Of a stretch of 64,000 nucleotides of DNA, positions 33,281 through 54,060 are shown one piece after another. This stretch comes from Caldilineaceae bacterium SB0661_bin_34 (GTDB lineage: Bacteria > Chloroflexota > Anaerolineae > Caldilineales > Caldilineaceae): the NCBI GenBank assembly GCA_009841145.1, contig VXMJ01000020.1, forward strand, positions 87,128 to 151,127, in the 5' to 3' direction. The number at the start of each line of letters is the position of its first letter. Within the stretch, counting starts at the first letter, position 1. Under the pieces are notes generated by a model, which did not search any database, was not told the origin of the DNA, and saw only the letters and a program-made list of their open reading frames with translations. A program made the translations under genes and the position numbers.

Positions 33281-36200
33281 ATGAATTCCTCAGTGAACCA
33301 AAACATTACCACCGAAACATCAACAAGCTTAGGCCGCACCGCACCAGGAGAAGGCGAACGCGGAGCTGCCGCTGGTTACTACAAACAATATCAATATTCT
33401 GCAGTCATCATCCTCAAGCAACTCAGGCATGGCCAACTCGATTGGATACGCGTAGCAGATCCTCAGGCAGGTCGCGTAGACGACATTTTGATCGGAACAG
33501 CAGAACGGATTGACGCATACCAAGTGAAAACCGAGCAATATCCCGGCCTTTTCACTTTTAACGACTTGACAACCCCCAAAGGCAAACCGCCATTGATCAC
33601 GCAATTGGCACAAGGATGGTTTACACTGCGCGAGCGATATCCCAACAAATTGGTGGTAGTCCATCTGGTAACCAACCAGACACCGTCAAATTCTCCCAAT
33701 GCCAACATCCCACTAGGTCCAACTCAGCCGACACCGAAACACTTCGCAGCGTTTTTGCACCAAGTTTGGGAACCAGCCCATCGCACGCGTATGGACTCCG
33801 ACATCAACATCCCTGATGAATGGTTACACGCGTGGAATGCACTCCAGCAACAAAGTGACCTTCCCGCAATTGCTTTCGACAATTTCGTCCGGGATTGCAA
33901 ATTGGAATTCAGGGCTAGACCGCATCTAGACATAGACATACCATCCACGCGAGAGCAGCAATTTGCAACCGAAGCGGTAGATAATATCGCGAACTTGATT
34001 TTTTCAACCGTAGCCGGCCCCGAACATGAGATCGAGATGTCACGCGAGCAGTTGCTCGAACGGCTCAATTGGACTGACAATTTTGAATACAGAAGCAGTC
34101 ATCATTTCCCTTTGCAAAATCACATTTATCAAGAGATTGAATCTTCTGCAACCGAACTCATGGTTTCCATTGAAACCTATGCTGGAGGTTACATTGCCGT
34201 GATGGGTTCACCTGGCTCCGGCAAGTCAACCTTATTAACTAACATTCGCACAAGATTAAAACTTCGTTGGATTTCATATTACGCATACATTCCAGATGAC
34301 CCACATTCTCGGAATCTCCGCGGCGAGTCAGTGAGTTTTTTGCACGACGTAACCCTTGCACTAGAACGAAGTGGATTTCAGGTTGGGATTACTCCAAATC
34401 GATTCGACCGAAGTCTACTGCTTGAAAGATTTCATCGACTACTCAAACAGTTGAATGAGGACTGGCGCACAACTGGACGCAAGACTGTCATAGTGATTGA
34501 TGGGCTTGATTTTATTGAACGCGAACTCTCACCAACTCAATCGTTATTGAATGACCTGCCTGATCCCGATCAAGTACCGGACGGAGTATATTTCGTTCTC
34601 GGCACTCAAACTGATACACTGTTGAAACCTAATATACGAGCCATGTTGCACCGCAAATGCCAACCTGGCCGCACAGTCTACATGTCTCCACTGACACGTC
34701 CTCAAGTAAATGAAGTGGTTGATGCTGCCAATTTATCTACTGAATTGGACGTCACACAACGACGGCGAATATATGATGTATCAGATGGACATCCGCTGTA
34801 TTTGAACTATTTGATCAAGGAAATTAGGTTGCGTAAAAATCCAACAGCACTCGTGGAGACTCTTCAATCAGCTACACAGTATAGTGACGACATTGAGACT
34901 GTCTATTATGGTCATTGGCAGCGGTTTTCTGATGACATGACATTGGTAATACTTCTTGGAATGTTTGCTAGAGTCAAAGGCGTAATAGATATCACTTGGG
35001 TCAGAACATGGGCCGATTTTCCAACACTTCAGAAACTCATTAGGCAGTTTTCGCATTATTTCAGAATTGAAAACTCAACTCGCTGGTATTTTTTTCATGA
35101 CAGTTTTCGGCAATTTTTGACGGACAGAACCTGCGAAGCCCCTCTTGGCGACTCCGATTCTGACGTAGATCGTCATTACCATGCAAAGTTGGCGTTGCAC
35201 TGCGCAGACTCGGCACCCGAACATATATTACAACGATGGAACGAGTTGCATCATCGCGCTGCAGCGGGTGAGCACAGCAAAGTGCTTACGTTAGCCACTC
35301 AACTGCACTTTCGAACACAGTTCTTGGAGTTCCGGCCATTGGATGCTATCCGGGCGGACATCCTCAACTCAATTGCGGTAGCTGTGGAGTGTAAAGACTT
35401 GATCGCCATGATCCGTCTTTGTTTGGTAGGGTCCGAGATGTGTCAAAGGGGGGAATATCATCAGCCTGCAAGACTTGCCAGTGTGTTGTTAAGAACTGCA
35501 TCGCATGAGTTGGCACTGTTGCAATTGCGGGATGGGTTGCGGTTGCGCGTTGACGCGGTGACGGCGCTTAGGGTTGTTAAGCCGCTCATTCAGGCTGGTC
35601 TGACCTCAGAAGCTCGGCGTATTTTCGAAATTGCGGAACCACTTGACTTGCTGGCTGGTGTTGCATCGAATTTGACAAATGAACCTTTTGACCAGAATCC
35701 ATCTGATTTGCGCCAAGTGCTACAAGAGTGGGTGAAAGCAGCGGCTTGTGTCAAAGATGTTGCTAAGACCATCGATGTGATCCAAGCCATTCCGTTTGAC
35801 AGTCCTGACATGGTGGAGTTGCTGGAAATGAAGCTGTCGAGCGGATTCTGTGGGCGACTGCTTTTTGATTTCGGTGTGGAGCTGATAGCCCAAGAACGTT
35901 CGTCCGACTTAGACATTGTGCTGAATACACTTGATTCAGGCGATCCACAGTACCGTGAACCACTATTTTGGCTCCTGTTCCGAGCTTACGAACAAAGCTA
36001 CAATGTAGGTAAACTTAGGGAAGCATCAAGTTACTGCACACGTTTGTTGGGATTAGATCGCCAGTGTTTCCACAAGGAGCATTACATTGCACTTGCTGAT
36101 TGTGCGTGTCGCTTGCGGCAGAGCTACGACCTCGCAACAGGTTTGTTGACTAACGCAGTAGCAGCATCAGATGCCCAAGTGCATGACATGACCTGGAGCG

Positions 36201-39200
36201 AGTTGCCTTCGCATGACTTCCTGTTCAGGAAATTGCGCTTGATGCAATATCTGAGATTCAAAGGCCATTTGCCAGACGATTTCGCTACCACAACCGTCTC
36301 TGGCTCTGATTCTGACATTCGAGTCGAACGCGCGCTGAATGCCATTGCGTACATTTGGGAGTCTGCATTGGCCGGCCAGAAGATGGCCGCTTCGTCCATA
36401 CGCCAATGGGCATGGCTGCTTCGCCTGTACTACCACCACCCTGTGGACATGGCAAACCATGAACAGTCACCCTTTCAGATGTATGGAAGCAAAACCAAGT
36501 TTTATCAATTGCTTGTGATGGCGGTTGCTCCCCATGGTACCGATGCACTTGGCGAACTTCGGACAATGTTTGTCCAAGAGTGGAACGACCCGCGCCAATC
36601 TCAATTTTGGCCGCCAGAGGTCAAGCGATCACTGATCTGCGAATTCATCGGAGTTGCAGACTCCAACAATTGGATCGTCGAAACATTGTGGGACATTGAC
36701 GAAACTATTCCGAGCGAACAAGACATACAAAGTTGGGTAGAGGAAGGTTTCAACCAGTCCGAGGCGTGGATTCGCTGTGGCAATTTTGACAACGGGATGA
36801 ACTCCCTGCGCAAGGCGCTAGAAAAAAGTTTCGGTGTTGGATATCGAAAAGATTATCAGATGGAGCGGTGGATTGACCGTCTCGACAAAGTCAATCGCGT
36901 CGAGCCACATCTTGCGCTTGATCGGATTCGCAGTTTTTCCGTTGGCACAATGCACCTTTACGAGAGTACTGAAGGCAGAGCTGCCTACCGAGCCGCGCGG
37001 CAGTTACTTGCAATTGCGTTCCGACATAGTCCTGCATGCGCACCAGAGTTGCTCACTTGGTTTGAACATCAGAACCTCTTGAGCCATTGGGGGGGGATTA
37101 GCGTCCTCATCGAGGAAGCAATGCAGTTAGCAACGCCACCATTGCCGCAAGTCTCACAATTGGTGACCGAGTTCTTGCTACCATACAATGCAACAGCCGA
37201 TTCCCGCGTTTTGCGTGACTTGGTGACACAGCTTAGCGCGCAGTTGAACCACAGCGAAGTCATTAAGGGAATACGGCTCCTTGTCAACCGAGTGAGATCG
37301 GACACAGTCCCATCCCAACGGTCCGAATGGTTGAGCGGCTTGGTCGAAGGTTTGGCTCGGGCGAACATTGCAAATTCAGACGCCGGACTGACAATCCAAG
37401 AAGTCGAAGCCGCGAGCCATTCCGATGTAATTTCAAACACTTTGGAGTTGGAAGGGGAACCTGAACATTTGCAAGTAGATGAAGTACTCACACGAGTGAA
37501 CTCAGTATTGGATGTCCGCGAATTGCTGGCTAAAGAGACGCACAACTCATATTTCAATTGGTTGCCTGTGGTAAAGGAGTTATGCCATTCGTTACGCGAT
37601 GTTGATGACTTGACCGAACTAGCGCAGACGTTCGGATGTCAACGCAACGCAAGTAGGATCCTCACTGCAATCAGCGCGCGCTTGGACCAGTTGGGGTTTA
37701 AACAACACGCGTGGCAAATTGGGACAGATGCACTCAACCGATCAAGTTTCTTGGGGTGGTATATCTGGTCAGAGGAAACCAGAGTTGAAACATTTCGAGC
37801 ATTGAACCAGATCGACAGAACCCGCACCTCTGAATTGATTTGGCAAACTTTGCTAACGGATCTCAGAGAACATTTCGACATTGTTGTTGCAATTATCAGT
37901 GCTTTAGATGACATATGTGAGCTGCTGGACCCCACAGCAAGATACGACGTTATCTGGCCAGAGATTGACATACATATTAAGCCACTATTACAAACTACAG
38001 ACTTTGATCGTCTCCCAACGTTATTTCAGCATGATGTCTCTGAAGTGCTCCCTGGTGAGATGTTTCTTGAATTGATTCTTGGGCATATTGATCATCCTTG
38101 TCAGGTTCTGCAACAAGCGACGCAGCGGAGTATCTGTAATCTCCTCCTGGATAATGCAAGCCAAGTTTTTGAGGTTGTTCAAACCGGTTTGTCTCTTTCA
38201 GAAACACATCAAGAAGGAATCCTCATCGCATTGGATGCTGTTAGTTTGTCCAATCCCAACATCATTGATTTCTTTCGGAGCCAAATATATGCACTTTATA
38301 ATTCTCCAAATTTTCAGATCAGATCAATAGCAAAGTCAATCGGGCAGCGGTTGAATTGGCCAGCTCCAAGTCACGCCAGGAAGTTGGAATCTCCCCATCC
38401 TACATATATGCTGACGTTTCCCGATCATGAGTTTGTCGACTTGGCGCACACTGGGCCTAACGATGATCCATCCCAATTCATATCTTTATTTCAAACCGAA
38501 ATCACGCGCATTGCTACAGCTGCCAATGTTCCGATAGAGAATGTAGTCCAACGTGTGATCAGCATCATTCATTCTCTGGTCCCACATCCGTCAGTGTTGT
38601 CTATGCAAGCAGAGAAAGAGCTTCAATCAACTTTGAATTCGGTTGGAGTACGTTTAGCATATCACAGACCTCGATTTTGCATTGCTCGCAGGGCTATATT
38701 TCACACTCTTGCTGAGTTGATAGATTGTGGCATGGTCACTGCTCAGTCGGCTGGCGATATCGGAGTTGACTTAAGGACATACGATCCCTACTTCGTACGG
38801 GCAGAATCCAAGCAACGCCCTTCGCAAATCTCGCGAATGTCAGTTTCGTCGATTAGGTCCAGCCCTAAAGATTGGGTTATGAGTGCGAGTGATTCCTTAC
38901 CTCATATTGTGTGGTGCCCAAATGGCAACCGCAAATTGGTGGCTGAAGTCACTTGTCTTAGCAAGAAAAGTATTGGACGTTCATCAATTGAAGAGCGCTA
39001 TAGCGCTTTGGTAGTTGAGCAGGAATTTCCCCTCGGTCAAGGAAAAAGCCTAGACAGTATATTTGCTTCGGCGACTAACGCAATTGTGACTGAGTACCCA
39101 TCGTTGAGTGGGACTCGGAAGCCCCATCATATTATTGTTCGCAACCAGACGTTTGGTTTTAACTCGCCGGGCTCCAATTGGCTTGCACTAGATCCCATCG

Positions 39201-39484
39201 TGGGCTATCAATGTGGTTGGAAAGTTTCCGATTCTGGCATGTTCAGATGGGTTGATTGTGATAATAATGTTATGGTTGAAAGTATTTGGTGGCGGGAAGG
39301 AAGGTCATCAGTGTATTCGGCGTCAGAGTATGCTGATGAAACAAGCGAAGGTTGGCTGGTTGTTGCTTCGGAACCAGCTTTGGCTCAAATCCAGCGCGAT
39401 TGTGGTCAGGTAGTGAGGAAGGCGATTGTTGTAAGGCAATTCGATGAACGTGGGAATGTGGTCAAGCACCGAGCGGATGCTTAA
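33281..39484 (+). CDS. Avs-like STAND NTPase with N-terminal Cap4-like nuclease
   Basis: A single 2,067-residue protein. Residues 30-200 resemble the Cap4-type PD-(D/E)XK nuclease of antiphage proteins: GYYKQYQYSAVIILKQL, then D67-D68 and Q81-V-K83 (VDDILIG, AYQVKTEQ). Residues 295-560 are a STAND/AAA NTPase: Walker A GSPGSGKST (309-317), Walker B VIVIDGLD (403-410), then a winged-helix-like part (WYFFHDSFRQFL). The remaining ~1,450 residues are helical, repeat-like sensor sequence, ending in a more beta-rich domain after about 1,890. Size and order match Avs (AVAST) pattern-recognition proteins, which tetramerise on phage terminase or portal and then cut DNA. Its GC is visibly lower than that of neighbours, indicating transfer. 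The exact Avs type is not assignable by eye. Confidence 0.8.
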   Translation: MNSSVNQNITTETSTSLGRTAPGEGERGAAAGYYKQYQYSAVIILKQLRHGQLDWIRVADPQAGRVDDILIGTAERIDAYQVKTEQYPGLFTFNDLTTPKGKPPLITQLAQGWFTLRERYPNKLVVVHLVTNQTPSNSPNANIPLGPTQPTPKHFAAFLHQVWEPAHRTRMDSDINIPDEWLHAWNALQQQSDLPAIAFDNFVRDCKLEFRARPHLDIDIPSTREQQFATEAVDNIANLIFSTVAGPEHEIEMSREQLLERLNWTDNFEYRSSHHFPLQNHIYQEIESSATELMVSIETYAGGYIAVMGSPGSGKSTLLTNIRTRLKLRWISYYAYIPDDPHSRNLRGESVSFLHDVTLALERSGFQVGITPNRFDRSLLLERFHRLLKQLNEDWRTTGRKTVIVIDGLDFIERELSPTQSLLNDLPDPDQVPDGVYFVLGTQTDTLLKPNIRAMLHRKCQPGRTVYMSPLTRPQVNEVVDAANLSTELDVTQRRRIYDVSDGHPLYLNYLIKEIRLRKNPTALVETLQSATQYSDDIETVYYGHWQRFSDDMTLVILLGMFARVKGVIDITWVRTWADFPTLQKLIRQFSHYFRIENSTRWYFFHDSFRQFLTDRTCEAPLGDSDSDVDRHYHAKLALHCADSAPEHILQRWNELHHRAAAGEHSKVLTLATQLHFRTQFLEFRPLDAIRADILNSIAVAVECKDLIAMIRLCLVGSEMCQRGEYHQPARLASVLLRTASHELALLQLRDGLRLRVDAVTALRVVKPLIQAGLTSEARRIFEIAEPLDLLAGVASNLTNEPFDQNPSDLRQVLQEWVKAAACVKDVAKTIDVIQAIPFDSPDMVELLEMKLSSGFCGRLLFDFGVELIAQERSSDLDIVLNTLDSGDPQYREPLFWLLFRAYEQSYNVGKLREASSYCTRLLGLDRQCFHKEHYIALADCACRLRQSYDLATGLLTNAVAASDAQVHDMTWSELPSHDFLFRKLRLMQYLRFKGHLPDDFATTTVSGSDSDIRVERALNAIAYIWESALAGQKMAASSIRQWAWLLRLYYHHPVDMANHEQSPFQMYGSKTKFYQLLVMAVAPHGTDALGELRTMFVQEWNDPRQSQFWPPEVKRSLICEFIGVADSNNWIVETLWDIDETIPSEQDIQSWVEEGFNQSEAWIRCGNFDNGMNSLRKALEKSFGVGYRKDYQMERWIDRLDKVNRVEPHLALDRIRSFSVGTMHLYESTEGRAAYRAARQLLAIAFRHSPACAPELLTWFEHQNLLSHWGGISVLIEEAMQLATPPLPQVSQLVTEFLLPYNATADSRVLRDLVTQLSAQLNHSEVIKGIRLLVNRVRSDTVPSQRSEWLSGLVEGLARANIANSDAGLTIQEVEAASHSDVISNTLELEGEPEHLQVDEVLTRVNSVLDVRELLAKETHNSYFNWLPVVKELCHSLRDVDDLTELAQTFGCQRNASRILTAISARLDQLGFKQHAWQIGTDALNRSSFLGWYIWSEETRVETFRALNQIDRTRTSELIWQTLLTDLREHFDIVVAIISALDDICELLDPTARYDVIWPEIDIHIKPLLQTTDFDRLPTLFQHDVSEVLPGEMFLELILGHIDHPCQVLQQATQRSICNLLLDNASQVFEVVQTGLSLSETHQEGILIALDAVSLSNPNIIDFFRSQIYALYNSPNFQIRSIAKSIGQRLNWPAPSHARKLESPHPTYMLTFPDHEFVDLAHTGPNDDPSQFISLFQTEITRIATAANVPIENVVQRVISIIHSLVPHPSVLSMQAEKELQSTLNSVGVRLAYHRPRFCIARRAIFHTLAELIDCGMVTAQSAGDIGVDLRTYDPYFVRAESKQRPSQISRMSVSSIRSSPKDWVMSASDSLPHIVWCPNGNRKLVAEVTCLSKKSIGRSSIEERYSALVVEQEFPLGQGKSLDSIFASATNAIVTEYPSLSGTRKPHHIIVRNQTFGFNSPGSNWLALDPIVGYQCGWKVSDSGMFRWVDCDNNVMVESIWWREGRSSVYSASEYADETSEGWLVVASEPALAQIQRDCGQVVRKAIVVRQFDERGNVVKHRADA

Positions 39485-40977: not shown

Positions 40978-41794
40978 TCCGCAGCACTGGCTGCACGTCC
41001 TGCAGGCTGCAGAACGGCTGCAGCGTGCCTTGGACGGCATCTATGTGGTCGGTGGGACAGCGGCGGCCCTATGGGCGGGACACCGCACATCCCATGATGC
41101 TGATCACTACATGCCGGACCTGGAACACAGGTTTGACGAGGTATTGGACAGATTGGAAACGCTGCCCGGATGGATCACGGTCCGGATACGCAGGCCCCAT
41201 CTGATCCTGGGACAACTGGATGGTGTCATGGCGGGGGTGGCGCAACACCCCACCGTCGCTTCCGGTTCCATGCAGGTAGAGACCACCCAAGTCACCACCC
41301 CGCAGGGTTTGACGATTCGTCTCCCCACCTTTCGCGACACCCTACTTCTCAAAAGCCGTCTGCTGATGACGCGCAACATGGCCCGGGATTACGTTGACTA
41401 CGTTTATCTGGCCATGAGTTTGGAAGATGCCAATTTGGAACAGGCCTTGGCCCCTGCCAAGCGATACAAGCTTCCGTCCTCGGGTCCATGGTCGCACGAC
41501 GGCTCCGAACGTCCCATAGCCTATCTGGAGGAATTGGGGCTTCGTCTTGTTCGTCCCACACCAAAGGACACACGCCAGATCCGATTGCACTGGCATCGGT
41601 TCCAGTCCCTCAATACAGGGGCCTCGTTCCCGTCCTGGGATGAAATCGCATCCTATTGCCAAACCGAGGGCACCCGTGTGTTGGAGGTTTATCGTGCATG
41701 GAATATCTGTGGACCATGCGGGTCCGGGCACGGGCATGAAGGCAGTGACGATGGCGAACTCTCCAGTGACGATACTGACGGGAAGAACACGTAA
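40949..41794 (+). CDS. Nucleotidyltransferase of the AbiEii type (putative toxin)
   Basis: Contains VVGGTAAALWAGHRTSHDAD, the GG...R.S.D.D signature of minimal nucleotidyltransferases of the AbiEii/AbiGii toxin family, followed by LRLPTFRDTLLLKSRLLMTR-like context (IRLPTFRDTLLLKSRLL) where the lysine of the family lies. AbiE-type toxins transfer nucleotides to tRNA and cause abortive infection. The first in-frame start after the antitoxin core is TTG 40949, overlapping the upstream gene; the open frame goes further up (40805) but is only its shadow. The acidic tail GSDDGELSSDDTDGKNT is unusual. Confidence 0.72.
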   Translation: MPAPRAIPTDPQHWLHVLQAAERLQRALDGIYVVGGTAAALWAGHRTSHDADHYMPDLEHRFDEVLDRLETLPGWITVRIRRPHLILGQLDGVMAGVAQHPTVASGSMQVETTQVTTPQGLTIRLPTFRDTLLLKSRLLMTRNMARDYVDYVYLAMSLEDANLEQALAPAKRYKLPSSGPWSHDGSERPIAYLEELGLRLVRPTPKDTRQIRLHWHRFQSLNTGASFPSWDEIASYCQTEGTRVLEVYRAWNICGPCGSGHGHEGSDDGELSSDDTDGKNT

Positions 41795-41799
41795 CCCTT

Positions 41800-42105
41800 A
41801 GTGGATAGGGCCATGAGTGTCGACTTGGCAGGGAGCCACCTGATGGCAGGTGAGGTCCAGATGGCCCGACTGCCCCCGGCCGCCGGCCCGTCCCACAGTG
41901 CAGGCTGCGTCGCCGGCGCCCCGGACCGTCCTGCGAAGGGGCTTGGCCGCTGTTGCTTCTGTCCCGGTGCACCTGCCGACGCAGGTCCTGGATTTTTTCC
42001 TGCAGCCGTCTAACCTGCTTCTCCAACAACATATTCTTCTCCACCAGCATCGCCACCTGCTCGCGCAGGGCGGCCGGTTCGCAGGCCAGGGCTGAAGAAG
42101 GCATG
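41800..42105 (-). pseudogene. IS66-family transposase N-terminal remnant
   Basis: The minus strand reads EPAALREQVAMLVEKNMLLE with EKQVRRLQEKIQDLRRQ and then SNSGQAPSQDGPGRRRR and GRRPGAVGPSGPHLP, the coiled coil plus NSS.PPSsD..GRRPGGQ.GH pattern that begins IS66 TnpC. Nothing of the catalytic core follows. It is a short decayed fragment abutting the nucleotidyltransferase gene. Confidence 0.65.
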
Positions 42106-42529
42106 ACGGGTCCCGCAAACGGAACGGAAGGGCACAGGCCGGCACACGCCGTCATCCTTGACTTGCAGCACGAGAACGCGTCGAACGGATCCGACACCTA
42201 TGTTCTGGTCGGAACACCGTCAGGCAGTGCGTAGAAGGTTACCCCCAGTGCACCTCGCCCTGGACCTACACCAGGTCACAAGCGGAGATTCCGAGTGACA
42301 ACGGTCTCATAGGCGCTGGTTGCAGCTCCCAACTCTCGCTAACAGAAGATCTGAAATTCCCCTCGCACTGACCTCCCTGAACACACCTAACGCAACAACT
42401 CGATACGGGAATCGTCTTATATGGATAAGCAGAGCTACCCCTCCTGTAGGTCGCTCTTGGCCTACAGTTTCCTCTCTTCTGGACTTCACAATGATTTTGC
42501 TTGAAGGCAATCCACCCACTACCTTGAGA
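42106..42529 (+). other. Leader of the LysM-PA14-ankyrin gene
   Basis: About 420 bases of IS66-adjacent and then lower-GC DNA. The downstream gene's frame is open from 42320, with ATGs at 42491 and 42530, but those residues are not domain-like. No promoter could be fixed. Confidence 0.35.
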
Positions 42530-45160
42530 ATGCGCTTGGAGAGCGTGTCCGCTAGTCGCAGCAGCATTCAATTGCGGGTCTTGGGGCTGATTGTTGCGGC
42601 CCTGTTGCTCTTTGCCCATCAAAACGTGGTGGCTGAAGCTCAGAATTCCCATCAGACCCACATCGTTCGGACAGGCGACACCTTGGTCTCCATTGCAGAG
42701 CAATACAAAACGACAGTAGCCCAGTTAAGGCAGCTCAACAATCTGTCGGAAACTGAGGCTCTGTACGTTGGCCACACGTTGATCGTGTCCCAGGTAGGCG
42801 TCTCTACCCCGCCGTCCACTCGCTCGGTGGTGCACTCAGCATGCCCTGTTTTGCACACGGTTCAGAGAGGCGAAACATTATGGGCCATTGCCAACCGCTA
42901 TGACGTAAGCCTGACCGGCATTGCCCAAGCCAACAACCTATCGAACCATCGCCTGATTCGAGTCGGACAATCGCTTTGCATTCCGGGTACCACCAGTCAG
43001 CCGTCTCCTACTCCCGGGCGCACCGGACCTCAACCCCAACCCGGCACAGCCAGCTATACAGTGCTGGGTGGCGACACGCTCTTTTTGATTGCCCGCGCAC
43101 ACGGTGTTTCTGTGCAAGATCTGATCGAGGCCAATGGCATCACCGACCCGAGAAGGTTGTATCCCGGCCAGGTATTGCGGATTCCCGGTTCAAGCATGGT
43201 GGAAACAGGAAGTACCGGAACCACACCTGCTGACACCGATCCAACATCTGGTTTCTTTACGGTCCAGTTTTTCAACAACCTGAGCTTCACCGGATCCCCA
43301 GTCCTGACACAGCAAGTCGCACCAGGCACTCGCTTTGACTGGGGCTTGGCTGCTCCAGGCCCGCAGGTCAATGCCGATCACTTCACCGCCAGGCTGGAAG
43401 GCCAATTCAGTTTCGAAGAAGGCCTGCACCGTTTCAGCGTGACTGTTGACGACGGCATGCGACTGTATGTGGACAACAATCTGGTCCACGAAGCTTGGCA
43501 CGATCAGGCTGCCACCACCCATGAGGTCGATGTGCATTTGACGGCTGGCCTTCATCAGGTGCGTCTGGATTACTACGAACGGGCATCCTCTGCAAGTCTG
43601 TGGCTCCGTTGGCAACGGCTGACTCCTGGGTTGATTGCGGCCCCGCCATTACCCCCCGTTGCTCCTATGCCAGTGCCAAACCCTCCAGCCGATGCTTTCA
43701 ATCTGCAGTTTTTCAACAACGTGGACCTGAGCGGGCCACCTGTGCTAACCCAAGTCGCGCCAGTGGGAAAACGGTTTGACTGGGGTACAGGTTCCCCAGG
43801 TCCTCAAGTCCACAAGGACAATTTCAGTGCCCGCATGGAAGGTAACTTCCACTTCACTGAAGGCACCTATCGCTTTTTTGTAACCACTGATGATGGTTTA
43901 CGTCTATACATTGATGGTGAACTGGTGTTGGATGAATGGGGGGACTCGCCGGAGCTCACCTCCTATAAGGACATCGACCTGGCGTCGGGTTCGCATCACG
44001 TACTGCTGGAATATTACGAAAGTGGCGGCGTCGCGGTCATGTGGCTGCGTTGGCAACCTCTATTCCCCTCAAACACAAGGATTCCACAGACTGCTATCAC
44101 TCCTCCTACACCAGGTTCAGGCACTTACACTGAAGAAGACAAACGGGCATTGTTCCACGCCATTCTGAATAACGACATAGTGACGGTGCGTCGCATGATC
44201 GCCAGTACGGGATTTCCAAGGTTCCGCAACAGATTGAGCGGTACGGCCCTGCACTGGGCAGCCAGAGTGGATGCCTTGGAAATCATGGCCTTGCTACTAA
44301 CTTACCCTGAGGCGGACCCCAACGTTCGTTTTGACAATGCCAATTCAGACCCCTGGAACAAAAACCGGACCCCGCTTCATGAAGCTGCCACGCACGGCAA
44401 TGCGGCAATGTCGGAGCTGTTGCTTGCTCATGGAGCCGATCCTTCGCTTGCCACGAGAAAAGGTTTTACCGCTTTGCACTTTGCCGCGAGCAGCAAACAT
44501 ACGGATGTGGTTGAAATACTCCTGAAACACAATGCCGATCCCAATGTTCAGGAACAGTTTTCAGGGAATTCCCCCTTGCACAGCGCCACAAGATGGAAAC
44601 CCGATCCAGAAGTTCTGGAAATCCTGTTGAGACATCGAAGGATCAGACCCAATCTGAGGAATCACGATGGGCAAACAGCCTTGCATGAGACAATTGTTTT
44701 CGGGCACAGAGCACAGTTGGCGATTTTGCTCGACCATCCTGAGGTCGATCCCAATATAAGGGATGACTCCGGTCGGACCCCACTCTATCAGGCTGTGGCA
44801 AACGAGAACAAGGAACTTGTGAAGTTGCTACTGGACAACAGGGAAACAGATCCCAATAAACGGAATGACATAGGATTCACCGCACTCTACCGGGCCGTGT
44901 ATGATGAAAACGAGGATCTTGTGGAGTTGTTACTTGACCACCGGAAAACAGATCCCAACATCGACACCAAGAAGGAGTGGACTCCATTGTTCAGGGCTGT
45001 TTCGAATGGTGACCGCGACATTGTTAAGCTATTGCTGGAACATGATGATATTGATGCTGAAATCGAAACTCAAGGTTGGACGCCACTGATGTTGGCTTAC
45101 CACGAAGGCTTTGACAGAATCGCAAGATTGTTGGAAAGGCACCTTGGCTACCAGGGTTAG
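42530..45160 (+). CDS. Secreted LysM-PA14-ankyrin repeat protein
   Basis: An 876-aa exported protein: signal peptide (SSIQLRVLGLIVAALLLFA, cleaved near AEAQ); three LysM domains (43-86, 108-152, 176-219; HTVQRGETLWAIANRYDVS is typical) for peptidoglycan or chitin-like glycans; two PA14 beta-barrel domains (242-362, 389-509; TVDDGMRLYVDN and TTDDGLRLYIDGEL carry the DDG); and seven or eight ankyrin repeats (about 535-870; GTALHWAARVDALEIMALLL, TPLHEAATHGNAAMSELLLA). It should sit on the cell wall and bind proteins and glycans. Ankyrin proteins outside the cell often act in host interaction. ATG 42491 (13 residues longer) is an alternative start. Confidence 0.9.
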   Translation: MRLESVSASRSSIQLRVLGLIVAALLLFAHQNVVAEAQNSHQTHIVRTGDTLVSIAEQYKTTVAQLRQLNNLSETEALYVGHTLIVSQVGVSTPPSTRSVVHSACPVLHTVQRGETLWAIANRYDVSLTGIAQANNLSNHRLIRVGQSLCIPGTTSQPSPTPGRTGPQPQPGTASYTVLGGDTLFLIARAHGVSVQDLIEANGITDPRRLYPGQVLRIPGSSMVETGSTGTTPADTDPTSGFFTVQFFNNLSFTGSPVLTQQVAPGTRFDWGLAAPGPQVNADHFTARLEGQFSFEEGLHRFSVTVDDGMRLYVDNNLVHEAWHDQAATTHEVDVHLTAGLHQVRLDYYERASSASLWLRWQRLTPGLIAAPPLPPVAPMPVPNPPADAFNLQFFNNVDLSGPPVLTQVAPVGKRFDWGTGSPGPQVHKDNFSARMEGNFHFTEGTYRFFVTTDDGLRLYIDGELVLDEWGDSPELTSYKDIDLASGSHHVLLEYYESGGVAVMWLRWQPLFPSNTRIPQTAITPPTPGSGTYTEEDKRALFHAILNNDIVTVRRMIASTGFPRFRNRLSGTALHWAARVDALEIMALLLTYPEADPNVRFDNANSDPWNKNRTPLHEAATHGNAAMSELLLAHGADPSLATRKGFTALHFAASSKHTDVVEILLKHNADPNVQEQFSGNSPLHSATRWKPDPEVLEILLRHRRIRPNLRNHDGQTALHETIVFGHRAQLAILLDHPEVDPNIRDDSGRTPLYQAVANENKELVKLLLDNRETDPNKRNDIGFTALYRAVYDENEDLVELLLDHRKTDPNIDTKKEWTPLFRAVSNGDRDIVKLLLEHDDIDAEIETQGWTPLMLAYHEGFDRIARLLERHLGYQG

Positions 45161-45172
45161 GAAAGGTGATTG

Positions 45173-45345
45173 GCTCAAGGAAGCCACTGGCAGGCTGCGG
45201 AAGAATGGGTTTTGGATGACACCGGCCCCTACGCGCGGGTTGTCGAGATCGTCCCCTGGGGGCGGTGGCCCGTCCTTGGCACGGAAGTTCTTGAGGCTGG
45301 CGGCCGCCTCGCTCAGGGTGCCATCCACCCTGAGCAGGCCGCATG
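45173..45345 (-). other. Decayed coding fragment sharing a tail with 40187-40227
   Basis: The minus strand reads TLSEAAASLKNFRAKDGPPP then DDLDNPRV and VIQNPFFRSLPVAS. The last part matches, over about 40 bases, the segment VFQNPFFSSLL at 40187-40227 on the plus strand, which follows an IS5-type remnant. It may be the end of another IS copy or of a small mobile gene; I do not recognise the family. Confidence 0.4.
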
Positions 45346-45406
45346 TCCCGGCCGCTCTCCTTCGGCCGGGGTAGAATTCGGCAACGGCACACGCAGGGAA
45401 CATGCT

Positions 45407-46681
45407 ATGGCCACCGCCATTCGGGAACGGGAACGAATACAGGCGACACCCAACGGGCTCGTGCGGGACCGGTACGCCGACCCAACCATGACACGCGCGG
45501 CGCGGGAAAAGAGGATTGCTTGGCGGCTGGATCATCTGGATGAGTGGCAGCGCGACCTGGAGAACCTGGCCCACTATGATCCGCGCTACGCCTACGATGT
45601 CGCCCACGAGTACGACCATGATTGGACTACCGACCCCGACTATGGCCCCAGGGCCATCGATCTGCTTGAATTCGACGAGGATGGCGTGCAGCACCGCGAG
45701 GATACCCGACCACAGGCCATTGAACTGCACATGCGCGACACCCTCCAGGACCGGTTCGGCCACCGTGTGGTGTACCAGAACCGCTACGGTTTCGTGGAGG
45801 AAATCGCTGAGAACCTTGGGCTGCTAACCCGGCAGGGCCGCCCGTCGAATACCATCAAGCCCGATTTGATGGTGATGCCGTCGGAGGAGGAGCTGCTGAG
45901 TGACCAAGACCCGGACCGCAGGCCCAGACCCGACGATCCCGTCCCCGAGTTGGTGCTGGAAATCCTGTCCGAATCCACGGCAGCACGGGACCTGGGCGAC
46001 AAGAGGCTGCTTTATGAGGCCCTGGGCGTTCACGAGTACCTGGTCTACGACCTTGGTGGCAAGCGGCGACCGGGTTCGCCCCGGTCGCTGCTGTTGTACC
46101 GGCTGGAGGGTGGGATCTACCGACAGATGGCCCCCGAGCCGAAACGATCCTCGTCGGATCCGGACCGGCACTGGAGCGACGTGTTCGGTACGTACATCCG
46201 TTTCTTGCCGGACGTGCGAGAGAACGCCGAGGAGTTTCGCAAGTTGCCGGAAGGGAACCGGCCGCCGCCCCGCTTCCAGTGGTGGGATACCGCGGAGTCT
46301 CGTTGGCGCGACCATGAAACCGATGCCGAGATCGAGCGGGACCGGGTCGTGCAGGAACGAGACCGGATCGTGCAGGAACGAGACCGGGTCGTGCAGGAAA
46401 ATGACCGGATTGCCCAGGAACGAGACCAGGCAGTGCAGGAACGAGACCGGCTCGCTCAGGAAAGGACAAGCATGGCCATCGACCTGCTGCGCGCGCATCT
46501 GGGGTCGGAACTGGCGACAGCACACCGGAATCGAATCGAGGCAGTCTGGCACCGGGACGGTCCGCCAACGGATGTGGTCGACCGCATCCTGCAGGTGCGG
46601 TCAACACCCGACGCGTGGCAGTCGCTGTTACTACCGGACAAACCTGACAACGACACCGGTTCTGCCGTCACCAACACCTGA
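45407..46681 (+). CDS. Uma2 (DUF820) protein with repeat-encoded coiled coil
   Basis: A 424-aa protein. About residues 100-270 are a Uma2 domain of the restriction-endonuclease fold: KPDLMVMPSEEEL, ELVLEILSESTAARDLGDKR and GVHEYLVYDLGG give the D, E and K positions. The N-terminal ~90 residues are charged and helical. Residues about 310-355 are six heptads (RDRVVQERDRIVQERD...) forming a coiled coil; a helical end (MAIDLLRAHLGSELATAHRNR) follows. The start ATG 45407 has AGGGA eight bases upstream. It resembles the gene at 16561-17730 in plan (Uma2 plus heptads). The coil probably makes it oligomeric; function is unknown. Confidence 0.86.
   Translation: MATAIRERERIQATPNGLVRDRYADPTMTRAAREKRIAWRLDHLDEWQRDLENLAHYDPRYAYDVAHEYDHDWTTDPDYGPRAIDLLEFDEDGVQHREDTRPQAIELHMRDTLQDRFGHRVVYQNRYGFVEEIAENLGLLTRQGRPSNTIKPDLMVMPSEEELLSDQDPDRRPRPDDPVPELVLEILSESTAARDLGDKRLLYEALGVHEYLVYDLGGKRRPGSPRSLLLYRLEGGIYRQMAPEPKRSSSDPDRHWSDVFGTYIRFLPDVRENAEEFRKLPEGNRPPPRFQWWDTAESRWRDHETDAEIERDRVVQERDRIVQERDRVVQENDRIAQERDQAVQERDRLAQERTSMAIDLLRAHLGSELATAHRNRIEAVWHRDGPPTDVVDRILQVRSTPDAWQSLLLPDKPDNDTGSAVTNT
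46340..46465 (+). repeat. Six tandem 21-bp repeats encoding heptads
   Basis: Six units of gaccgggtcgtgcaggaacg plus one base, starting at 46340, 46361, 46382, 46403, 46424 and 46445, with increasing divergence in the last three. Each codes one heptad, DRVVQER, so copy-number change alters coil length without breaking the frame. Confidence 0.92.
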
Positions 46682-46704
46682 CGGCGGCACAACCCCCGGA
46701 ATTG

Positions 46705-46729
46705 GCCGCGGGGTCTCAGCCCCCGCGGC
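46705..46729 (+). terminator. GC-rich hairpin after the Uma2 gene
   Basis: A perfect 9-bp stem GCCGCGGGG/CCCCGCGGC with a 7-base loop lies 23 bases after the stop codon. No T-tract follows, so termination efficiency is uncertain. Confidence 0.5.
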
Positions 46730-47060
46730 GAACTTCCATCCCCCACACTCCGCAGACAACGGCCAACTACGAACAGATGTGTCCAGTGGATGTCGCGCTC
46801 ACTCCCGCGCGTCGGTGGTCCCCACCTTCTTCCACGGTTGCTTTTTGAGCGAAACCGGCGTGGTCAGGCAGCGGCTGCAACTCCCACCAACAAACAGTAG
46901 CTACTGCCACCTAACCAACACGGAAAATCGAACCCCCTACGACGTTGTCTGACTTTCTGCCTCAACAACCGCTGCAGACGAGAATCTGTGATCACTACGG
47001 CCTCAAGGTATCCGGTTCCTTGAACACCTGCTTGTCCACTTGACCAGCCACCATCACGTG
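46730..47060 (+). other. Intergenic region
   Basis: About 330 bases between the hairpin and the DHODH-like gene. I see no gene, repeat or clear promoter. Confidence 0.4.
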
Positions 47061-48131
47061 ATGTTGTCCTCCCTTCGCAACCAATTCGTCCCACCCTTGC
47101 TGGACGGCTACGGAGCCCTCTACTCGAGATTGGGCCGCCCCAAGCCTGGAGAAGAGGAAACCTTCAGGGCCAAGCTTCTGCAAGACTACCTTGGCCCCGC
47201 GGACCAACACTCCGACCTGCTCCGCTTAGGTCACAAACTTGGCTCTTTGCTGCTTCCTCAGGCTCCCGTTCAGGTGGGAGGAGTTCAGTTACCCCAGCCT
47301 TTCATTCTGGCGGGAGGCTGGATCAAGGGCAGAGGCTATGCTAACGAGAGCGAAGCTCTGGCCCATGTTGTCCGCTCCGATTCGTTCCTGCCGGGCTGGC
47401 GCATACTGCCCTTGTTGGCCGGGCCGGTGGAGTACGGCTCGTTCAACCGTTGGCCCCGACTCGCACCCGGTGTCTCCGGCAACCCCGGTATCCGCGCCGC
47501 GACAGCCTATTTGTCCTTGCATCAATCGGGCCTTCCTTCCACCTACGGACTCAACATCTCACCCCCTCCGGTACCGGGTGATGATGAAGAAATGCGACAG
47601 GAGATCACCGAGTCCCTGGAGATCATCTTCGCCGCGGACCTCAAACCGTCCTGGCTCACCCTGAACCTCGCGCACATCATGATGGACCCGGAGTTGACTG
47701 CCACAGTCGATAACCTCGTGGAGGTGGCCAGTCAAGCCATGCCCGCCGCCACCCCGCTTTGGTTCAAGGTGAGTCCCGAGCTGACGGCAACCCGTTATCG
47801 AGAACTTCTGGAACTGTGCGATAAATGCAACGTCAGGGCCATCATCGCGACCGATGTCCTTTTCCAGTACCACCCGGATGGCTCGCCGGCTTTCCTGAGT
47901 GGCAAGCCACTCGCCCCCTTGGCACGCAAAGCCCAGATCGCCCTGGCCACCTTGAAACACATCCACGGTCATGAAGTGGACCTCGTGGCCTGTGGTGGAA
48001 TTTTGGCCGGTCGGGATCTGCCCGCATTGGCACGGTTGGGAATCCGAGCCTGGCAATACCATTCGGCTCTGCATCACCGAGGTCCGCTTGCCGCCCCCCT
48101 GATCTGGTGGGAGGCCGAAAGACGACGCTGA
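47061..48131 (+). CDS. Dihydroorotate dehydrogenase-like flavoprotein
   Basis: A 356-aa TIM-barrel protein in the DHODH class. Visible points are the N-terminal FILAGGWIKGRGYANESEA (place of the A.G...k), the central STYGLNISPPPVPGDDEEM, LWFKVSPELTATRYRELLEL, IIATDVLFQ and the flavin phosphate motif LVACGGILAGRDLPALARLG. These resemble class 2 enzymes, which pass electrons to quinone in pyrimidine synthesis. The catalytic Ser/Cys and the NTT-type motif are not clear-cut, so it may be a divergent paralogue rather than the housekeeping PyrD. ATG 47061 is preferred to TTG 47040. Confidence 0.7.
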   Translation: MLSSLRNQFVPPLLDGYGALYSRLGRPKPGEEETFRAKLLQDYLGPADQHSDLLRLGHKLGSLLLPQAPVQVGGVQLPQPFILAGGWIKGRGYANESEALAHVVRSDSFLPGWRILPLLAGPVEYGSFNRWPRLAPGVSGNPGIRAATAYLSLHQSGLPSTYGLNISPPPVPGDDEEMRQEITESLEIIFAADLKPSWLTLNLAHIMMDPELTATVDNLVEVASQAMPAATPLWFKVSPELTATRYRELLELCDKCNVRAIIATDVLFQYHPDGSPAFLSGKPLAPLARKAQIALATLKHIHGHEVDLVACGGILAGRDLPALARLGIRAWQYHSALHHRGPLAAPLIWWEAERRR

Positions 48132-48477
48132 GCCGACATTGGAGGAACGTGGGCGGTACCAGCGGGGCTAGTCTGGCACTACAGTTGTAAAGCAGCAAGC
48201 TGGACACGCTGGCGGTAGTAGCAGCACTGGACGTCCAAGCGCGACTCCGTTCCCAGGTCGGCCAGTGGTCCGTGGTAGGGACGATACACAGCCACATCCA
48301 CCACTGCGGGCGCCGCACTCGGACATGCCGCAATGAAGCGATGAAAACCGACTCAAGACTGTCCAAGCCGGTCAATGCCTACATGTGGATTCCTCGTGAC
48401 CCAAGACTTCTAAAATGATGTATCTTCAACGAACAGTCCCATTCTTACGCGTCCCTGATTAAATTTGCTGGCGCTCC
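48132..48477. other. Intergenic region with a possible coding remnant
   Basis: About 345 bases between two converging genes. On the minus strand, about 48185-48370, a 58-codon stretch reads IAACPSAAPAVVDVAVYRP then LADLGTESRLDVQCCYYRQR without a start codon and preceded by a TGA. It looks more protein-like than chance but I cannot name it. Confidence 0.35.
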
Positions 48478-49338
48478 CTATTTCCCATAACCCATGCGTA
48501 GCCCTTCCACAAAGTAGGGTTGGAAAATTAGATACAGGACCAGAAGTGGCAGCACGGTCAGCACGGACCCGGCCATAACCAAACCATAGTTGATGTTGAA
48601 TTCGCTCTGAACCGTTGCCAACCCCACAACCAGCGTGCGCATTTCGTTCGCGCGCAGGACAATCAGGGGCCAGAGGAAGGCATTCCAGGCATTCATCACG
48701 GTGAAGATGCCCAAGGCTGCCATGCCTGGCGTGGACAGGGGTATGACAATGGACCAAAAAATCCTGAGCTCGCTGGCCCCGTCAATGTTGGCCACTTCAA
48801 TCAGGGCTGTGGGCAGACTGGTTATGTACTGCCGCATCAGGAATATGCCGAAGGGCGTCGCCAAAGCGGGGATGATGAGGGCCCAGTAAGTGTTGAACAG
48901 GCGGAACACACGGATGATTTGGAAGGAAGGCAGTAGTACCACCGCTACCGGTACCATCATGGTGGCGAGGAGCAGGGCGAACACCAAGTCGCGGCCATAA
49001 AACTCCTTCTTGGCGAAGATGTACCCGGACAAGGTGTTTAGCAGCAGGCTGCCCGCCGTGATCAGAGTGGTGGTAAACACCGTATTGAAGAACCAGCGTG
49101 GAAACAGACCCTTTTGAAACCGGAAAATGATCTCAACGTAGTTGTCCAGGGACGGATTGTCCGGAATCAGGGTGGGTGGGTACGTCATCATGGTGAATGA
49201 CTTCGTGAAGGACGTGGATGCCATGAACAGGAATGGCACCACCGTTACCACCGACATGGTGATCATCACGGCATAGAATCCGGCCTGCCACAAGCGGGTG
49301 GCGCGCCGGGTGCGCATGCTACCGAAACTTGTGGTCAT
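48478..49338 (-). CDS. Carbohydrate ABC transporter permease, MalG/UgpE type
   Basis: A 286-aa membrane permease with six hydrophobic segments; EAA loop EVANIDGASELRIFWSIVIP, and FLMRQYITSLPTALIEVA before it. It ends LYLIFQPYFVEGLRMGYGK, the MalG-type tail. It is the last gene of a three-gene importer operon (binding protein 50660-51979, MalF-type 49513-50421, this gene), in the usual order. No ATPase is adjacent, as in the first sugar importer of this window. Confidence 0.93.
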   Translation of the reverse strand: MTTSFGSMRTRRATRLWQAGFYAVMITMSVVTVVPFLFMASTSFTKSFTMMTYPPTLIPDNPSLDNYVEIIFRFQKGLFPRWFFNTVFTTTLITAGSLLLNTLSGYIFAKKEFYGRDLVFALLLATMMVPVAVVLLPSFQIIRVFRLFNTYWALIIPALATPFGIFLMRQYITSLPTALIEVANIDGASELRIFWSIVIPLSTPGMAALGIFTVMNAWNAFLWPLIVLRANEMRTLVVGLATVQSEFNINYGLVMAGSVLTVLPLLVLYLIFQPYFVEGLRMGYGK

Positions 49339-49371
49339 GGACTGCTCCGGCCCTCCTCTGGATGATTATGA

Positions 49372-49420
49372 AGCGGAAGCCCGCGCCACGGAGCGGAAGC
49401 CCGCGCCACGGAGCGGAACC
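49372..49420 (+). repeat. 20-bp tandem repeats between two ABC permease genes
   Basis: agcggaagcccgcgccacgg occurs at 49372-49391 and 49392-49411, with a partial third copy to 49420, in the 174-bp gap between the MalF- and MalG-type genes. It enlarges the spacing where permease genes usually overlap or touch. Confidence 0.85.
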
Positions 49421-49512
49421 CGGACCGCGGTGCGGGTGAATCGGATGCCGGCATGGTGCTGGCGGGCCGGGCTTCACCTGCCTGGCGGACGGGAAATGTG
49501 GGCGGCCATGCA

Positions 49513-50421
49513 TCAATATTCGATGTCGGTGCGGAAAAACCGAAGCTGCATCAGGGACAGGGTCAGGATGACGATCAGGAGCACCACTCCCATGGTGCTG
49601 GCGAAGCCGATGTTGTCCGCCTCGAAAGCCTGCTGGTACACATACCAGCTAACCGTGGAGGTGGACCAGGCGGGCCCACCCTTGGTCAGGACATAGACAG
49701 CGTCGAACAGCTGAAAGTTGAAAATGGTGGCCATGATGAAGCAGAACCCCAGAGCCGGCCGTAACAGGGGCAAGGTTATGCTGCGGATAATGCGCCAGAA
49801 TTGGGCACCGTCGATGCGCGCCGCCTCGTACATCTCGCGCGGTATGGCCTGAAGCGCGGCAAACAGGATGATGACGTAGAACCCAAACCCACGCCAGATT
49901 TCCATCATCACGATGGCGGGGATGGCATAGGTGGGATTTCCAAGCCAGTCGATTCCCGGCACACCGAACCAGCCCAGAATATGGTTCAAGGGGCCGAAAT
50001 CCCGATTGACAATGTAGGCCCAGATGTTGGCCGCGATCACCACCGGAGTGATGAGAGGGAAATAAAACGTGCCGCGGAAGAAGCCTTGGCCCTTGGGCAC
50101 CTGAAAGACGATGATGGCGACCACAATGGACAGCACAATGACGGTGGGCACCGTCATCACGGCATAGAGGACTGTGTTCTGCAGTGTGCGCAGGAAGATG
50201 GGGTGGCTGGCAGCCCGCACGTAGTTGGCAAAGCCCACAAAGGTCTTCGGGCCCAGCATACTGCCCTTCGTCAATGAGTAGTAGATGCTCCAGAAAAGGG
50301 GAACGGTGGAGAATCCAAAAATGATCAGCAGGCTGGGCGACAGCAACAGGTACCAGAACAGGGACCGGCGCACCTTGCGCCAGGTCCGGTGCCGGGCAAT
50401 GCCCGGAGACGAGAGGCTCAT
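49513..50421 (-). CDS. Carbohydrate ABC transporter permease, MalF/UgpA type
   Basis: A 302-aa permease with six membrane helices, EAA loop EAARIDGAQFWRIIRSITLP, and the conserved FSTVPLFWSIYYSLTKGS near the N-terminus. A further conserved stretch is YVLTKGGPAWSTSTVSWYVY. It pairs with the MalG-type gene downstream. The N-terminal LSSPGIARHRTWRKVRRS is a normal basic cytoplasmic segment. Confidence 0.93.
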   Translation of the reverse strand: MSLSSPGIARHRTWRKVRRSLFWYLLLSPSLLIIFGFSTVPLFWSIYYSLTKGSMLGPKTFVGFANYVRAASHPIFLRTLQNTVLYAVMTVPTVIVLSIVVAIIVFQVPKGQGFFRGTFYFPLITPVVIAANIWAYIVNRDFGPLNHILGWFGVPGIDWLGNPTYAIPAIVMMEIWRGFGFYVIILFAALQAIPREMYEAARIDGAQFWRIIRSITLPLLRPALGFCFIMATIFNFQLFDAVYVLTKGGPAWSTSTVSWYVYQQAFEADNIGFASTMGVVLLIVILTLSLMQLRFFRTDIEY

Positions 50422-50659
50422 ACAACTACATCCTGGGCCGAGAGGACCTGCGGGGCAGGCCGGAGGGATGAACGCTCCTTACCTTGTTCCAGGCACGGTG
50501 ACCGGAGAGGAGATGAAAATGGTGCCACCCATCCTTGGCGTGCCTTGGACACTGCTTCCACCACATAGGAAACCAGGATTGGGCTGCAATCCCCACGGCT
50601 TGCCAGACTGGCGGCATGGATGGGGTGCCGCCAGTCCGGAATCATGCAGGTGATTGGGG

Positions 50660-51979
50660 TTATTCGCCGTCCAGAATCGGGTTCACCGTCGCTTCGACAT
50701 CAGCGAGGGCTTCCGCCGACGTTTTGATGCCGCTCATGACAGCATGGGACTCCTGGACCAGCGAGTTGGTCGCGTCGCGCCACCGGATGCTGATCTGCGT
50801 GCCCACGCCATAGCCCTTGCCCAGCCAAGAGACCATTTCGGCCACGATGGGATCAATGTCGTCAAGCGGCGCGATGTCTTTCTTTAGCGGCAGTAGATCG
50901 ACGCTCTTCTGTACATAGTCCACCTGAATTTCGTCGGTGGAGAGGTACTCGAGAAACGTGAACGCGCCGTCATTGCTGGCGGAACTGGAGGCCATGAACA
51001 TGAAGCCCACATTGGCCCAGGCAGCGTTCTGCCCCTCATCGGTCAACTGAAGCATCGGAATGATGTCCAGCTCCAGATCCGGGGCTGTAGTGCGCCACTG
51101 GGCCTTGATGGCTGAATTTTCCTGCCATATCATCCCAACCTGCCCCCCCAGGCTCAGATCCCGGCGCTGGTCGCCCGTGAAGCCCACCGGAATGCTGGAC
51201 TGATCGGCATAGGTAATGTTTTCCAGCAGTGCCTCGAAAGCCGCGCGGCCTCCTTCCGTGTTGGCAGTGACCTCGGTCAGGTCGTCGCTCAGGAGCCTGG
51301 CACCGCCCGCCGCCAGCAAGGGAATCATGGTGACCCAGTTGGTCGAACTGGCAGGCACGTTGATCCCATAGGTGCCCGCATCAAGGTCGGTCATCACCTG
51401 GGCAGCCTGGCGGAACTCCTCCCAATTGGTGGGGACAGAATCCAGCCCCTTTTCCCGGAAGAGGGTCATGTTGCACAGCCAGCCCTGCACCACCCCGAGG
51501 AAGGGGGATCCCCATGTGCTGCCTTTGTAAGTGGCGATCTCCCAAGCGGACTCAAGATAGTTCTCTTCCCAATCAATGATCCGATCAGTCAGATCCAGGA
51601 TTTGGCCCTGCTGCACGTATTTGGGGTACCACTCGTCAGGGAGGTAGAAGACATCAGGCGGTGATCCTCCGGCGAAGGCAGCAGTGAACTGTTCGTCCAC
51701 ATTACCCCAGGGAATAACCTGATGGTCCACAGTGATGCCGGGATTGGCATCCATGAACCGCTGCAGCAACGGCTCCCACACCTCAGCCGCCTTGGCACTG
51801 TGGGGCGGCTTCCAGTACAGCACATCCCAGGTGTCCGCCCCTGCTTCACCCTCAGCGGGGGCACTCGGCGCGGCGCAACCGGCCAACGCCGTCAAACCGG
51901 CGAACGTGCCCAGTGTAGCGGACAGGCGCAGAAATGAACGGCGTGAAATGTGGCTAATTTGACGTTTTTCATTCAACAT
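50660..51979 (-). CDS. Sugar ABC transporter substrate-binding lipoprotein
   Basis: A 439-aa exported binding protein. The signal is Tat-like (SRRSFLRLSATLGTFAG) with lipobox LAGC near residue 35. The body is a type-1 sugar-binding protein: VDEQFTAAFAGGSPPDVFYL, MIWQENSAIKAQWRT and AFTFLEYLSTDEIQVDYVQK. AGAGG lies ten bases before the ATG. First gene of the second importer operon. About 240 bases separate it from the MalF-type gene, with no extra gene in between. Confidence 0.93.
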   Translation of the reverse strand: MLNEKRQISHISRRSFLRLSATLGTFAGLTALAGCAAPSAPAEGEAGADTWDVLYWKPPHSAKAAEVWEPLLQRFMDANPGITVDHQVIPWGNVDEQFTAAFAGGSPPDVFYLPDEWYPKYVQQGQILDLTDRIIDWEENYLESAWEIATYKGSTWGSPFLGVVQGWLCNMTLFREKGLDSVPTNWEEFRQAAQVMTDLDAGTYGINVPASSTNWVTMIPLLAAGGARLLSDDLTEVTANTEGGRAAFEALLENITYADQSSIPVGFTGDQRRDLSLGGQVGMIWQENSAIKAQWRTTAPDLELDIIPMLQLTDEGQNAAWANVGFMFMASSSASNDGAFTFLEYLSTDEIQVDYVQKSVDLLPLKKDIAPLDDIDPIVAEMVSWLGKGYGVGTQISIRWRDATNSLVQESHAVMSGIKTSAEALADVEATVNPILDGE

Positions 51980-53910: not shown

Positions 53911-54060
53911 GGGACTACCTCTACAAGGAGTTGGGGGGCGTCGAGAAGCCGTTACGGAGCAGTGCTTGCCTGCACCGTTCGCTCCCACTGGGACTTATAT
54001 ACGATGGTTGACACCACGCATATCCGGTTCACGGGTCGCGGGAGTCCCTGTGGCTGGCCT
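53911..54060 (-). ncRNA. Candidate omega-RNA / right end of the TnpB element
   Basis: TnpB guide RNAs come from the 3' end of tnpB and the element's right end. Here that region on the minus strand folds small stems (TCCC-AGT-GGGA, and GTGC-AGGCAA-GCAC) within about 53945-53990. The element boundary, and hence the guide, must lie in the 84 bases before the DegT-type gene or within its start. No ends were proven. Confidence 0.35.

What the first reader, a model, noticed from the sequence alone, without database searches (positions are those of the whole stretch)
42530..45160. Exported LysM(3)-PA14(2)-ankyrin(7-8) protein
Ankyrin arrays are mostly cytoplasmic or secreted effectors of symbionts; anchoring them to the wall by LysM with two carbohydrate-binding PA14 domains is an uncommon order. 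The gene is in lower-GC DNA next to an IS66 fragment, hinting at acquisition. It could mediate host or cell contact.
Basis: partly seen in the sequence, partly recalled or inferred. Interest (0 to 1): 0.6.

Follow-up and report, generated by a model that had tools for sequence, protein, structure and literature searches.

The report
Surface-displayed ankyrin-repeat fusion protein
A bacterium of a probably sponge-associated lineage carries a secreted protein that looks built to hold a protein-grabbing "ankyrin" arm on the cell wall next to two sugar-binding domains, which could let it touch and influence its animal host without an injection machine; the arrangement is rare but made entirely of known parts.

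Summary
Window 42530-45160 (+) encodes one 876-residue protein: a Sec signal peptide, three LysM domains, two PA14 domains and an ankyrin array. The model (pLDDT 93) gives a cap plus nine repeats, not 7-8. It is one gene: a 92% orthologue in a second assembly and a 60% full-length paralogue shared by three genomes keep the same order, under purifying selection.

The architecture is uncommon. In 396 genomes sampled from the class it occurs only in this genus (3 of 4 genomes). The LysM-PA14-PA14 chassis without ankyrin is common. The genus is rich in ankyrin repeats, and about 23 of 32 complete ankyrin ORFs carry a rule-predicted export signal (many lipoproteins). Markers of type III, IV and VI secretion, contractile sheaths and an outer membrane were not found.

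Best reading: a wall-anchored display protein whose ankyrin arm binds a protein of the host, probably a sponge, and whose PA14 pair binds glycans. Anchoring and binding are inferred from family knowledge; host origin rests on one relative's MAG name. The gene sits in a variable island with defence genes, absent from that place in two sister genomes. New variant of a known kind.

The parts
42530..45160 (+). LysM(3)-PA14(2)-ANK(cap+9) coding sequence, 876 aa; alternative start ATG at 42491 (889 aa)
   Evidence: open frame and Pfam; alternative start aligns with start of paralogue
42530..42643 (+). Sec-type signal peptide, ...VLGLIVAALLLFAHQNVVAEA/Q
   Evidence: rule-based scan, conserved in orthologue and paralogues; SignalP not available
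42656..43180 (+). three LysM domains (about residues 43-86, 109-152, 175-217)
   Evidence: Pfam PF01476 E 2.1e-49, three stretches; second and third modelled with a LysM-like fold; the first was poorly modelled
43247..43624 (+). PA14 domain 1, with conserved DDG
   Evidence: Pfam PF07691; DDG invariant in 19 sequences
43691..44065 (+). PA14 domain 2, with conserved DDG
   Evidence: dyad matches RsgI3 6qe7, E 3e-27
44066..44134 (+). linker between chassis and ankyrin cargo; relatives without ankyrin end here
44135..44236 (+). non-canonical ankyrin N-cap (LFHAIxxxDxxTVxxMIxxxGFPxF), shared with SH3b/FN3-type ankyrin proteins of the same genome
   Evidence: alignment A1, model
44237..45142 (+). 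nine ankyrin repeats; the paralogue lacks one whole repeat
   Evidence: Pfam, model, alignment
41613..42197 (-). weak IS66-type transposase N-terminal remnant (DUF6444)
   Evidence: just below cut-off

Best explanation
The protein is exported by Sec, held on the outside of a single-membrane cell by its three LysM domains, and presents two glycan-binding PA14 domains followed by a ten-unit ankyrin arm. The PA14 pair probably binds polysaccharide, of the host matrix or of the cell's own coat; the ankyrin arm binds a protein ligand, most likely on or in host cells such as sponge phagocytes or matrix, to help the bacterium to be tolerated or retained. It arose by adding an ankyrin module, which also occurs on other exported carriers in this genome, to a LysM-PA14-PA14 carrier that is common in the class. 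Shown: domain order, intact coding, purifying selection, restriction to the genus in the sample, no hit to the injector and outer-membrane markers tested. Inferred: export, wall anchoring, ligands, host role.
For: Domains and signal peptide. Orthologue and paralogue with the same order and dN/dS 0.2-0.3 over the whole protein, 0.16-0.35 in the ankyrin part. PA14 pair matches the RsgI3 PA14 dyad in sequence (E 3e-27) and fold (E 1.7e-20), and next the sugar-binding PA14 of an RTX adhesin (6m8m and sugar complexes). Carrier without ankyrin in 21 other class genomes (LysM2-PA14x2 confirmed by Pfam in three of them); carrier with other cargo: glycosidase-like (L040, L052) and RCC1 repeats (L055). 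Ankyrin N-cap shared with SH3b/FN3-type exported proteins L041 and L046. Ankyrin enrichment in the genus: 30, 51, 7 and 73 Ank_2 matches against 0-8 in 33 other family genomes. About 23 of 32 complete ankyrin ORFs in three genomes have export signals. No VirB4, FliP/SctR, phage-sheath, VipB or Omp85 hit in four genomes, with positive controls ringing. In the paralogue, ankyrin substitutions between species concentrate on the ligand-facing positions (23 of 63 against 16 of 99 other non-core positions, p 0.004). Sponge Caldilineae carry abundant LysM and ankyrin proteins (PMC6306507).
Against: No ligand is known for any domain. The face-biased substitution pattern is not seen in the orthologue pair of the window gene itself (9 of 63 against 11 of 99, p 0.63). 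The host link rests on one MAG name (IRC1_bin_30) that I read as Ircinia, and on published enrichment, not on metadata seen here. G002 of the same genus lacks the protein and has only 7 ankyrin matches. Export was called with a simple rule, not SignalP. Five single marker families cannot exclude every secretion route.
Confidence: 0.55

Rival explanations
1. The protein serves the bacteria themselves: PA14 and ankyrin domains cross-link envelope proteins, exopolysaccharide and secreted enzymes or neighbouring cells, as an adhesin or scaffold without a host target.
For: The LysM-PA14(2) carrier is widespread in the class, and the same carrier holds a glycosidase-like domain or RCC1 repeats. PA14 dyads of this kind sense or bind polysaccharide in a free-living clostridium (RsgI3; function from general knowledge).
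Against: The ankyrin cargo is limited to one genus that is rich in ankyrin genes.
Confidence: 0.25
2. LysM binds chitin or other GlcNAc polymers of the host instead of the bacterium's own wall, so that the released protein coats host matrix.
For: LysM fold matches include the chitin-oligomer-binding fungal effector Ecp6 (4b8v). CBM50 (LysM) is described as linked to chitin or peptidoglycan cleavage in sponge Chloroflexi (PMC6306507).
Against: A bacterial cell-wall endopeptidase LysM (4uz2) is the better fold match; tandem N-terminal LysM after a signal peptide is the usual wall-binding layout (general knowledge).
Confidence: 0.12
3. A part of a defence island, acting against phage at the cell surface.
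For: Neighbours include an Avs1b-like STAND protein, an MmeI-type restriction-modification gene, an AbiEii-like gene and a Uma2 nuclease; PADLOC models PDC-M72A and 'Ankyrin' match the ankyrin part.
Against: PADLOC matches cover only ankyrin repeats; a LysM-anchored ankyrin defence protein is not known to me; the paralogue lies at a different place.
Confidence: 0.05
4. A passing acquired or decaying gene without selected function.
For: Variable island, insertion-sequence remnants, lower GC3.
Against: Intact in two species with dN/dS 0.32; paralogue intact in three with 0.2-0.3.
Confidence: 0.03

Closest known systems
LysM(2)-PA14(2) secreted proteins of the same class (e.g. L109, L112, L121)
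   Same: N-terminal signal, LysM then a PA14 dyad, 32-37% identity
   Different: they stop after the second PA14 and have two LysM; no ankyrin
RsgI3-type PA14 dyad (PDB 6qe7, 6qdi)
   Same: tandem PA14 of the same fold and spacing
   Different: RsgI3 is an anti-sigma factor with a membrane helix; here LysM and ankyrin flank the dyad
Exported ankyrin proteins of sponge symbionts and the secreted phage ankyrin protein of sponge symbionts (Jahn et al. 2019, as cited in PMC7064744)
   Same: exported ankyrin array, association with animal-hosted bacteria
   Different: here a LysM wall anchor and PA14 domains; anti-phagocytic activity untested
Dot/Icm ankyrin effectors (AnkH, AnkY, AnkG, AnkX)
   Same: ankyrin repeats only
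   Different: scores 62-89 bits against cut-offs of 500-1400; no injection system found; this protein has a Sec signal

Membership tests
Exported eukaryotic-like ankyrin proteins of sponge symbionts | ankyrin repeat array | tested here: met
   Pfam and AlphaFold2 model, cap plus nine repeats
Exported eukaryotic-like ankyrin proteins of sponge symbionts | export signal | tested here: met
   rule-based signal peptide, conserved in homologues; not SignalP
Exported eukaryotic-like ankyrin proteins of sponge symbionts | host is a sponge symbiont | tested here: inconclusive
   congener G001 matches Caldilineaceae isolate IRC1_bin_30; the name suggests Ircinia; no metadata for G000
Exported eukaryotic-like ankyrin proteins of sponge symbionts | modulates phagocytosis | not testable with these tools
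   needs expression and uptake assay
LysM wall-anchored surface proteins | LysM domains after a signal peptide | tested here: met
   three LysM; fold match to 4uz2
LysM wall-anchored surface proteins | binds peptidoglycan and stays on the wall | not testable with these tools
   absence of Omp85 agrees with exposure on a monoderm cell
RsgI-type anti-sigma factor | PA14 dyad | tested here: met
   E 3e-27 over the whole dyad
RsgI-type anti-sigma factor | N-terminal anti-sigma domain and central membrane helix | tested here: not met
   LysM and signal peptide instead
Type IV secreted (Dot/Icm) ankyrin effectors | equivalog model score over cut-off | tested here: not met
   89 bits against 600
Type IV secreted (Dot/Icm) ankyrin effectors | secretion apparatus in genome | tested here: not met
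   no VirB4-type ATPase (PF03135) in four genomes

The most novel reading that the evidence does not exclude
This genus replaces injection systems by a surface display platform: interchangeable exported carriers (LysM-PA14, SH3b-FN3, RCC1, WD40, plain lipoproteins) hold eukaryotic-like ankyrin arms outside the cell, so host proteins are met at the surface. That would answer how eukaryotic-like repeat proteins reach sponge cells in lineages without secretion systems.
Probability: 0.3. Interest if true: 0.65.

Novelty: new variant of a known kind. Interest (0 to 1): 0.45.

Why it matters
Sponge symbionts are rich in ankyrin and other eukaryotic-like repeat proteins, yet few have secretion systems, and how these proteins meet the host is called largely unknown (PMC8163846). 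Poribacteria and PAUC34f were already noted to have signal peptides on some such proteins. A carrier with an explicit wall anchor and sugar-binding domains gives a concrete, testable route: display at the surface.

Tried and rejected
Ankyrin as a separate or frameshifted protein: rejected by the intact frame in two assemblies and by the paralogue. Low GC only from ankyrin amino-acid usage: rejected, GC3 is low over the whole gene. Secreted type IV effector: rejected. Phage origin: viral contigs gave only two weak ankyrin relatives; no viral LysM-PA14-ANK was found. Plasmids gave no record covering 80% of the query. Binding-face excess in the window gene itself: not significant. First LysM could not be modelled with the alignment used. 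Several paper searches returned nothing on LysM with PA14 and ankyrin or on Caldilineaceae ankyrin proteins in sponges.

Full report
The frame at window 42530-45160 codes for 876 residues. Pfam finds three LysM, two PA14 and a long ankyrin region. A hydrophobic stretch followed by AEA-Q gives a Sec-type signal peptide by a simple rule. The true start may be the ATG at 42491, which lines up with the start of the paralogue.

AlphaFold2 of the ankyrin part has mean pLDDT 93.4 and shows ten helix pairs, a cap plus nine repeats; its nearest solved structures are ankyrin arrays such as those of ankyrin-1, ankyrin-B, MIB1 and designed DARPins. The carrier model is good for the two PA14 domains (about 80-90) and poor for the first LysM. 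The PA14 pair is closest to the RsgI3 dyad in fold and sequence, and next to the sugar-binding PA14 of the Marinomonas RTX adhesin. The DDG motif, which I recall as part of the calcium and sugar site in other PA14 proteins, is invariant in both domains over 19 sequences.

The gene is real and maintained. A 60% paralogue lies elsewhere in G000, G001 and G003. dN/dS is 0.32 for the orthologues and 0.21-0.28 for the paralogue pairs; the ankyrin part gives 0.35, 0.16 and 0.28. The paralogue has one ankyrin repeat fewer. Between species its substitutions favour hairpin and inner-helix positions (p 0.004 against other non-core positions), but the window gene does not show this.

Distribution. In 61 relatives and in 396 genomes sampled from the class, full-length relatives occur only in the genus, in three of its four genomes. 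Twenty-one other class genomes have LysM-PA14-PA14 proteins whose frames end after the second PA14 (Pfam in three of them). So the carrier is common and the ankyrin cargo is the novelty. In the genus the LysM-PA14 carrier also bears a glycosidase-like domain, present in all four genomes (L040, L052, L053, L054), or RCC1 repeats (L055). Conversely an ankyrin module with the same N-cap is found on SH3b/FN3-type exported proteins (L041, L046; FN3 by Pfam, SH3b by eye).

Ankyrin genes are many here: 30, 51, 7 and 73 Ank_2 matches in the four genus members against 0-8 in 33 others of the family. By a rule-based scan plus reading of N-termini, 7 of 9 complete ankyrin ORFs in G000, 11 of 12 in G001 and 5 of 11 in G003 have a signal peptide, lipobox or N-terminal membrane anchor. 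Carriers include WD40 and RCC1 repeats. The controls are not zero: several ankyrin proteins of other members of the family (L130, L131, L133, L141) and of a more distant family (L155, L158) are also lipoprotein-like, so exported ankyrin is wider than this genus; the LysM anchor was seen only here.

Machinery. Profiles for VirB4 (PF03135), FliP/SctR (PF00813), phage sheath (PF04984), VipB (PF05943) and Omp85 (PF01103) gave no match in any of the four genomes while control genomes rang. This argues against injection by these systems and for a monoderm cell, in which LysM-bound proteins would face outside.

Locus. G003 joins sequence equivalent to window 41811 to 47048 with about 0.9 kb between; G002 has window 45332-51602 and then, after about 1.1 kb, window 31552 and below. 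Neither has the gene here (tblastn negative). The island also holds an MmeI-type gene, an Avs1b-like STAND protein, a transposase, an AbiEii-like gene and a Uma2 nuclease. GC3 of the gene is 0.58. Gain in the G000/G001 ancestor or loss in the others cannot be separated.

Comparison with what is known. Bayer et al. describe sponge Caldilineae rich in ankyrin proteins and LysM (PMC6306507). Robbins et al. state that the way such repeat proteins reach sponge cells is largely unknown and that few symbionts have secretion systems (PMC8163846). Signal peptides on such proteins were noted in Poribacteria and PAUC34f (PMC3909097, PMC7081726). A secreted phage-encoded ankyrin protein lowers phagocytosis (reviewed in PMC7064744). 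The present protein fits this picture and adds a wall anchor with a glycan-binding pair. It is not a Dot/Icm effector.

Verdict: observation confirmed; interpretation plausible and sharpened; function inferred. The decisive unknowns are the source of the genomes, localisation and the ligands.

Noticed in passing
window 33281-39484: 2067-aa low-GC (0.48) STAND NTPase matching Avs1b in PADLOC, with a QVK nuclease-like N-terminus; missing from sister genome G002 at this place.
   Followed up: partly
window 28606-31548: MmeI-type restriction-modification enzyme at the edge of the variable island.
   Followed up: no
window 53995-55341 (-): IS605 OrfB/TnpB-type protein with a Cas12f1-like TNB domain.
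   Followed up: no
L043, L045, L105: Lipoprotein-like proteins with an ankyrin block set between RCC1 repeats; an unusual nested arrangement in three genomes of the genus (partial copies in L091 and L093).
   Followed up: partly
L094, L095: Lipoprotein-like giants of 1445 and 2372 aa combining WD40 and ankyrin repeats.
   Followed up: no
L102:4981-9258 (-): Ser/Thr protein kinase fused to more than 30 ankyrin repeats, apparently cytoplasmic.
   Followed up: no
L099:1-1731 (-): Swt1-like HEPN domain fused to ankyrin repeats.
   Followed up: no
window 42444-42467 (+): Ten-pair stem-loop with T-rich tail just upstream of the gene, nearly identical in G001; terminator or leader element.
   Followed up: no
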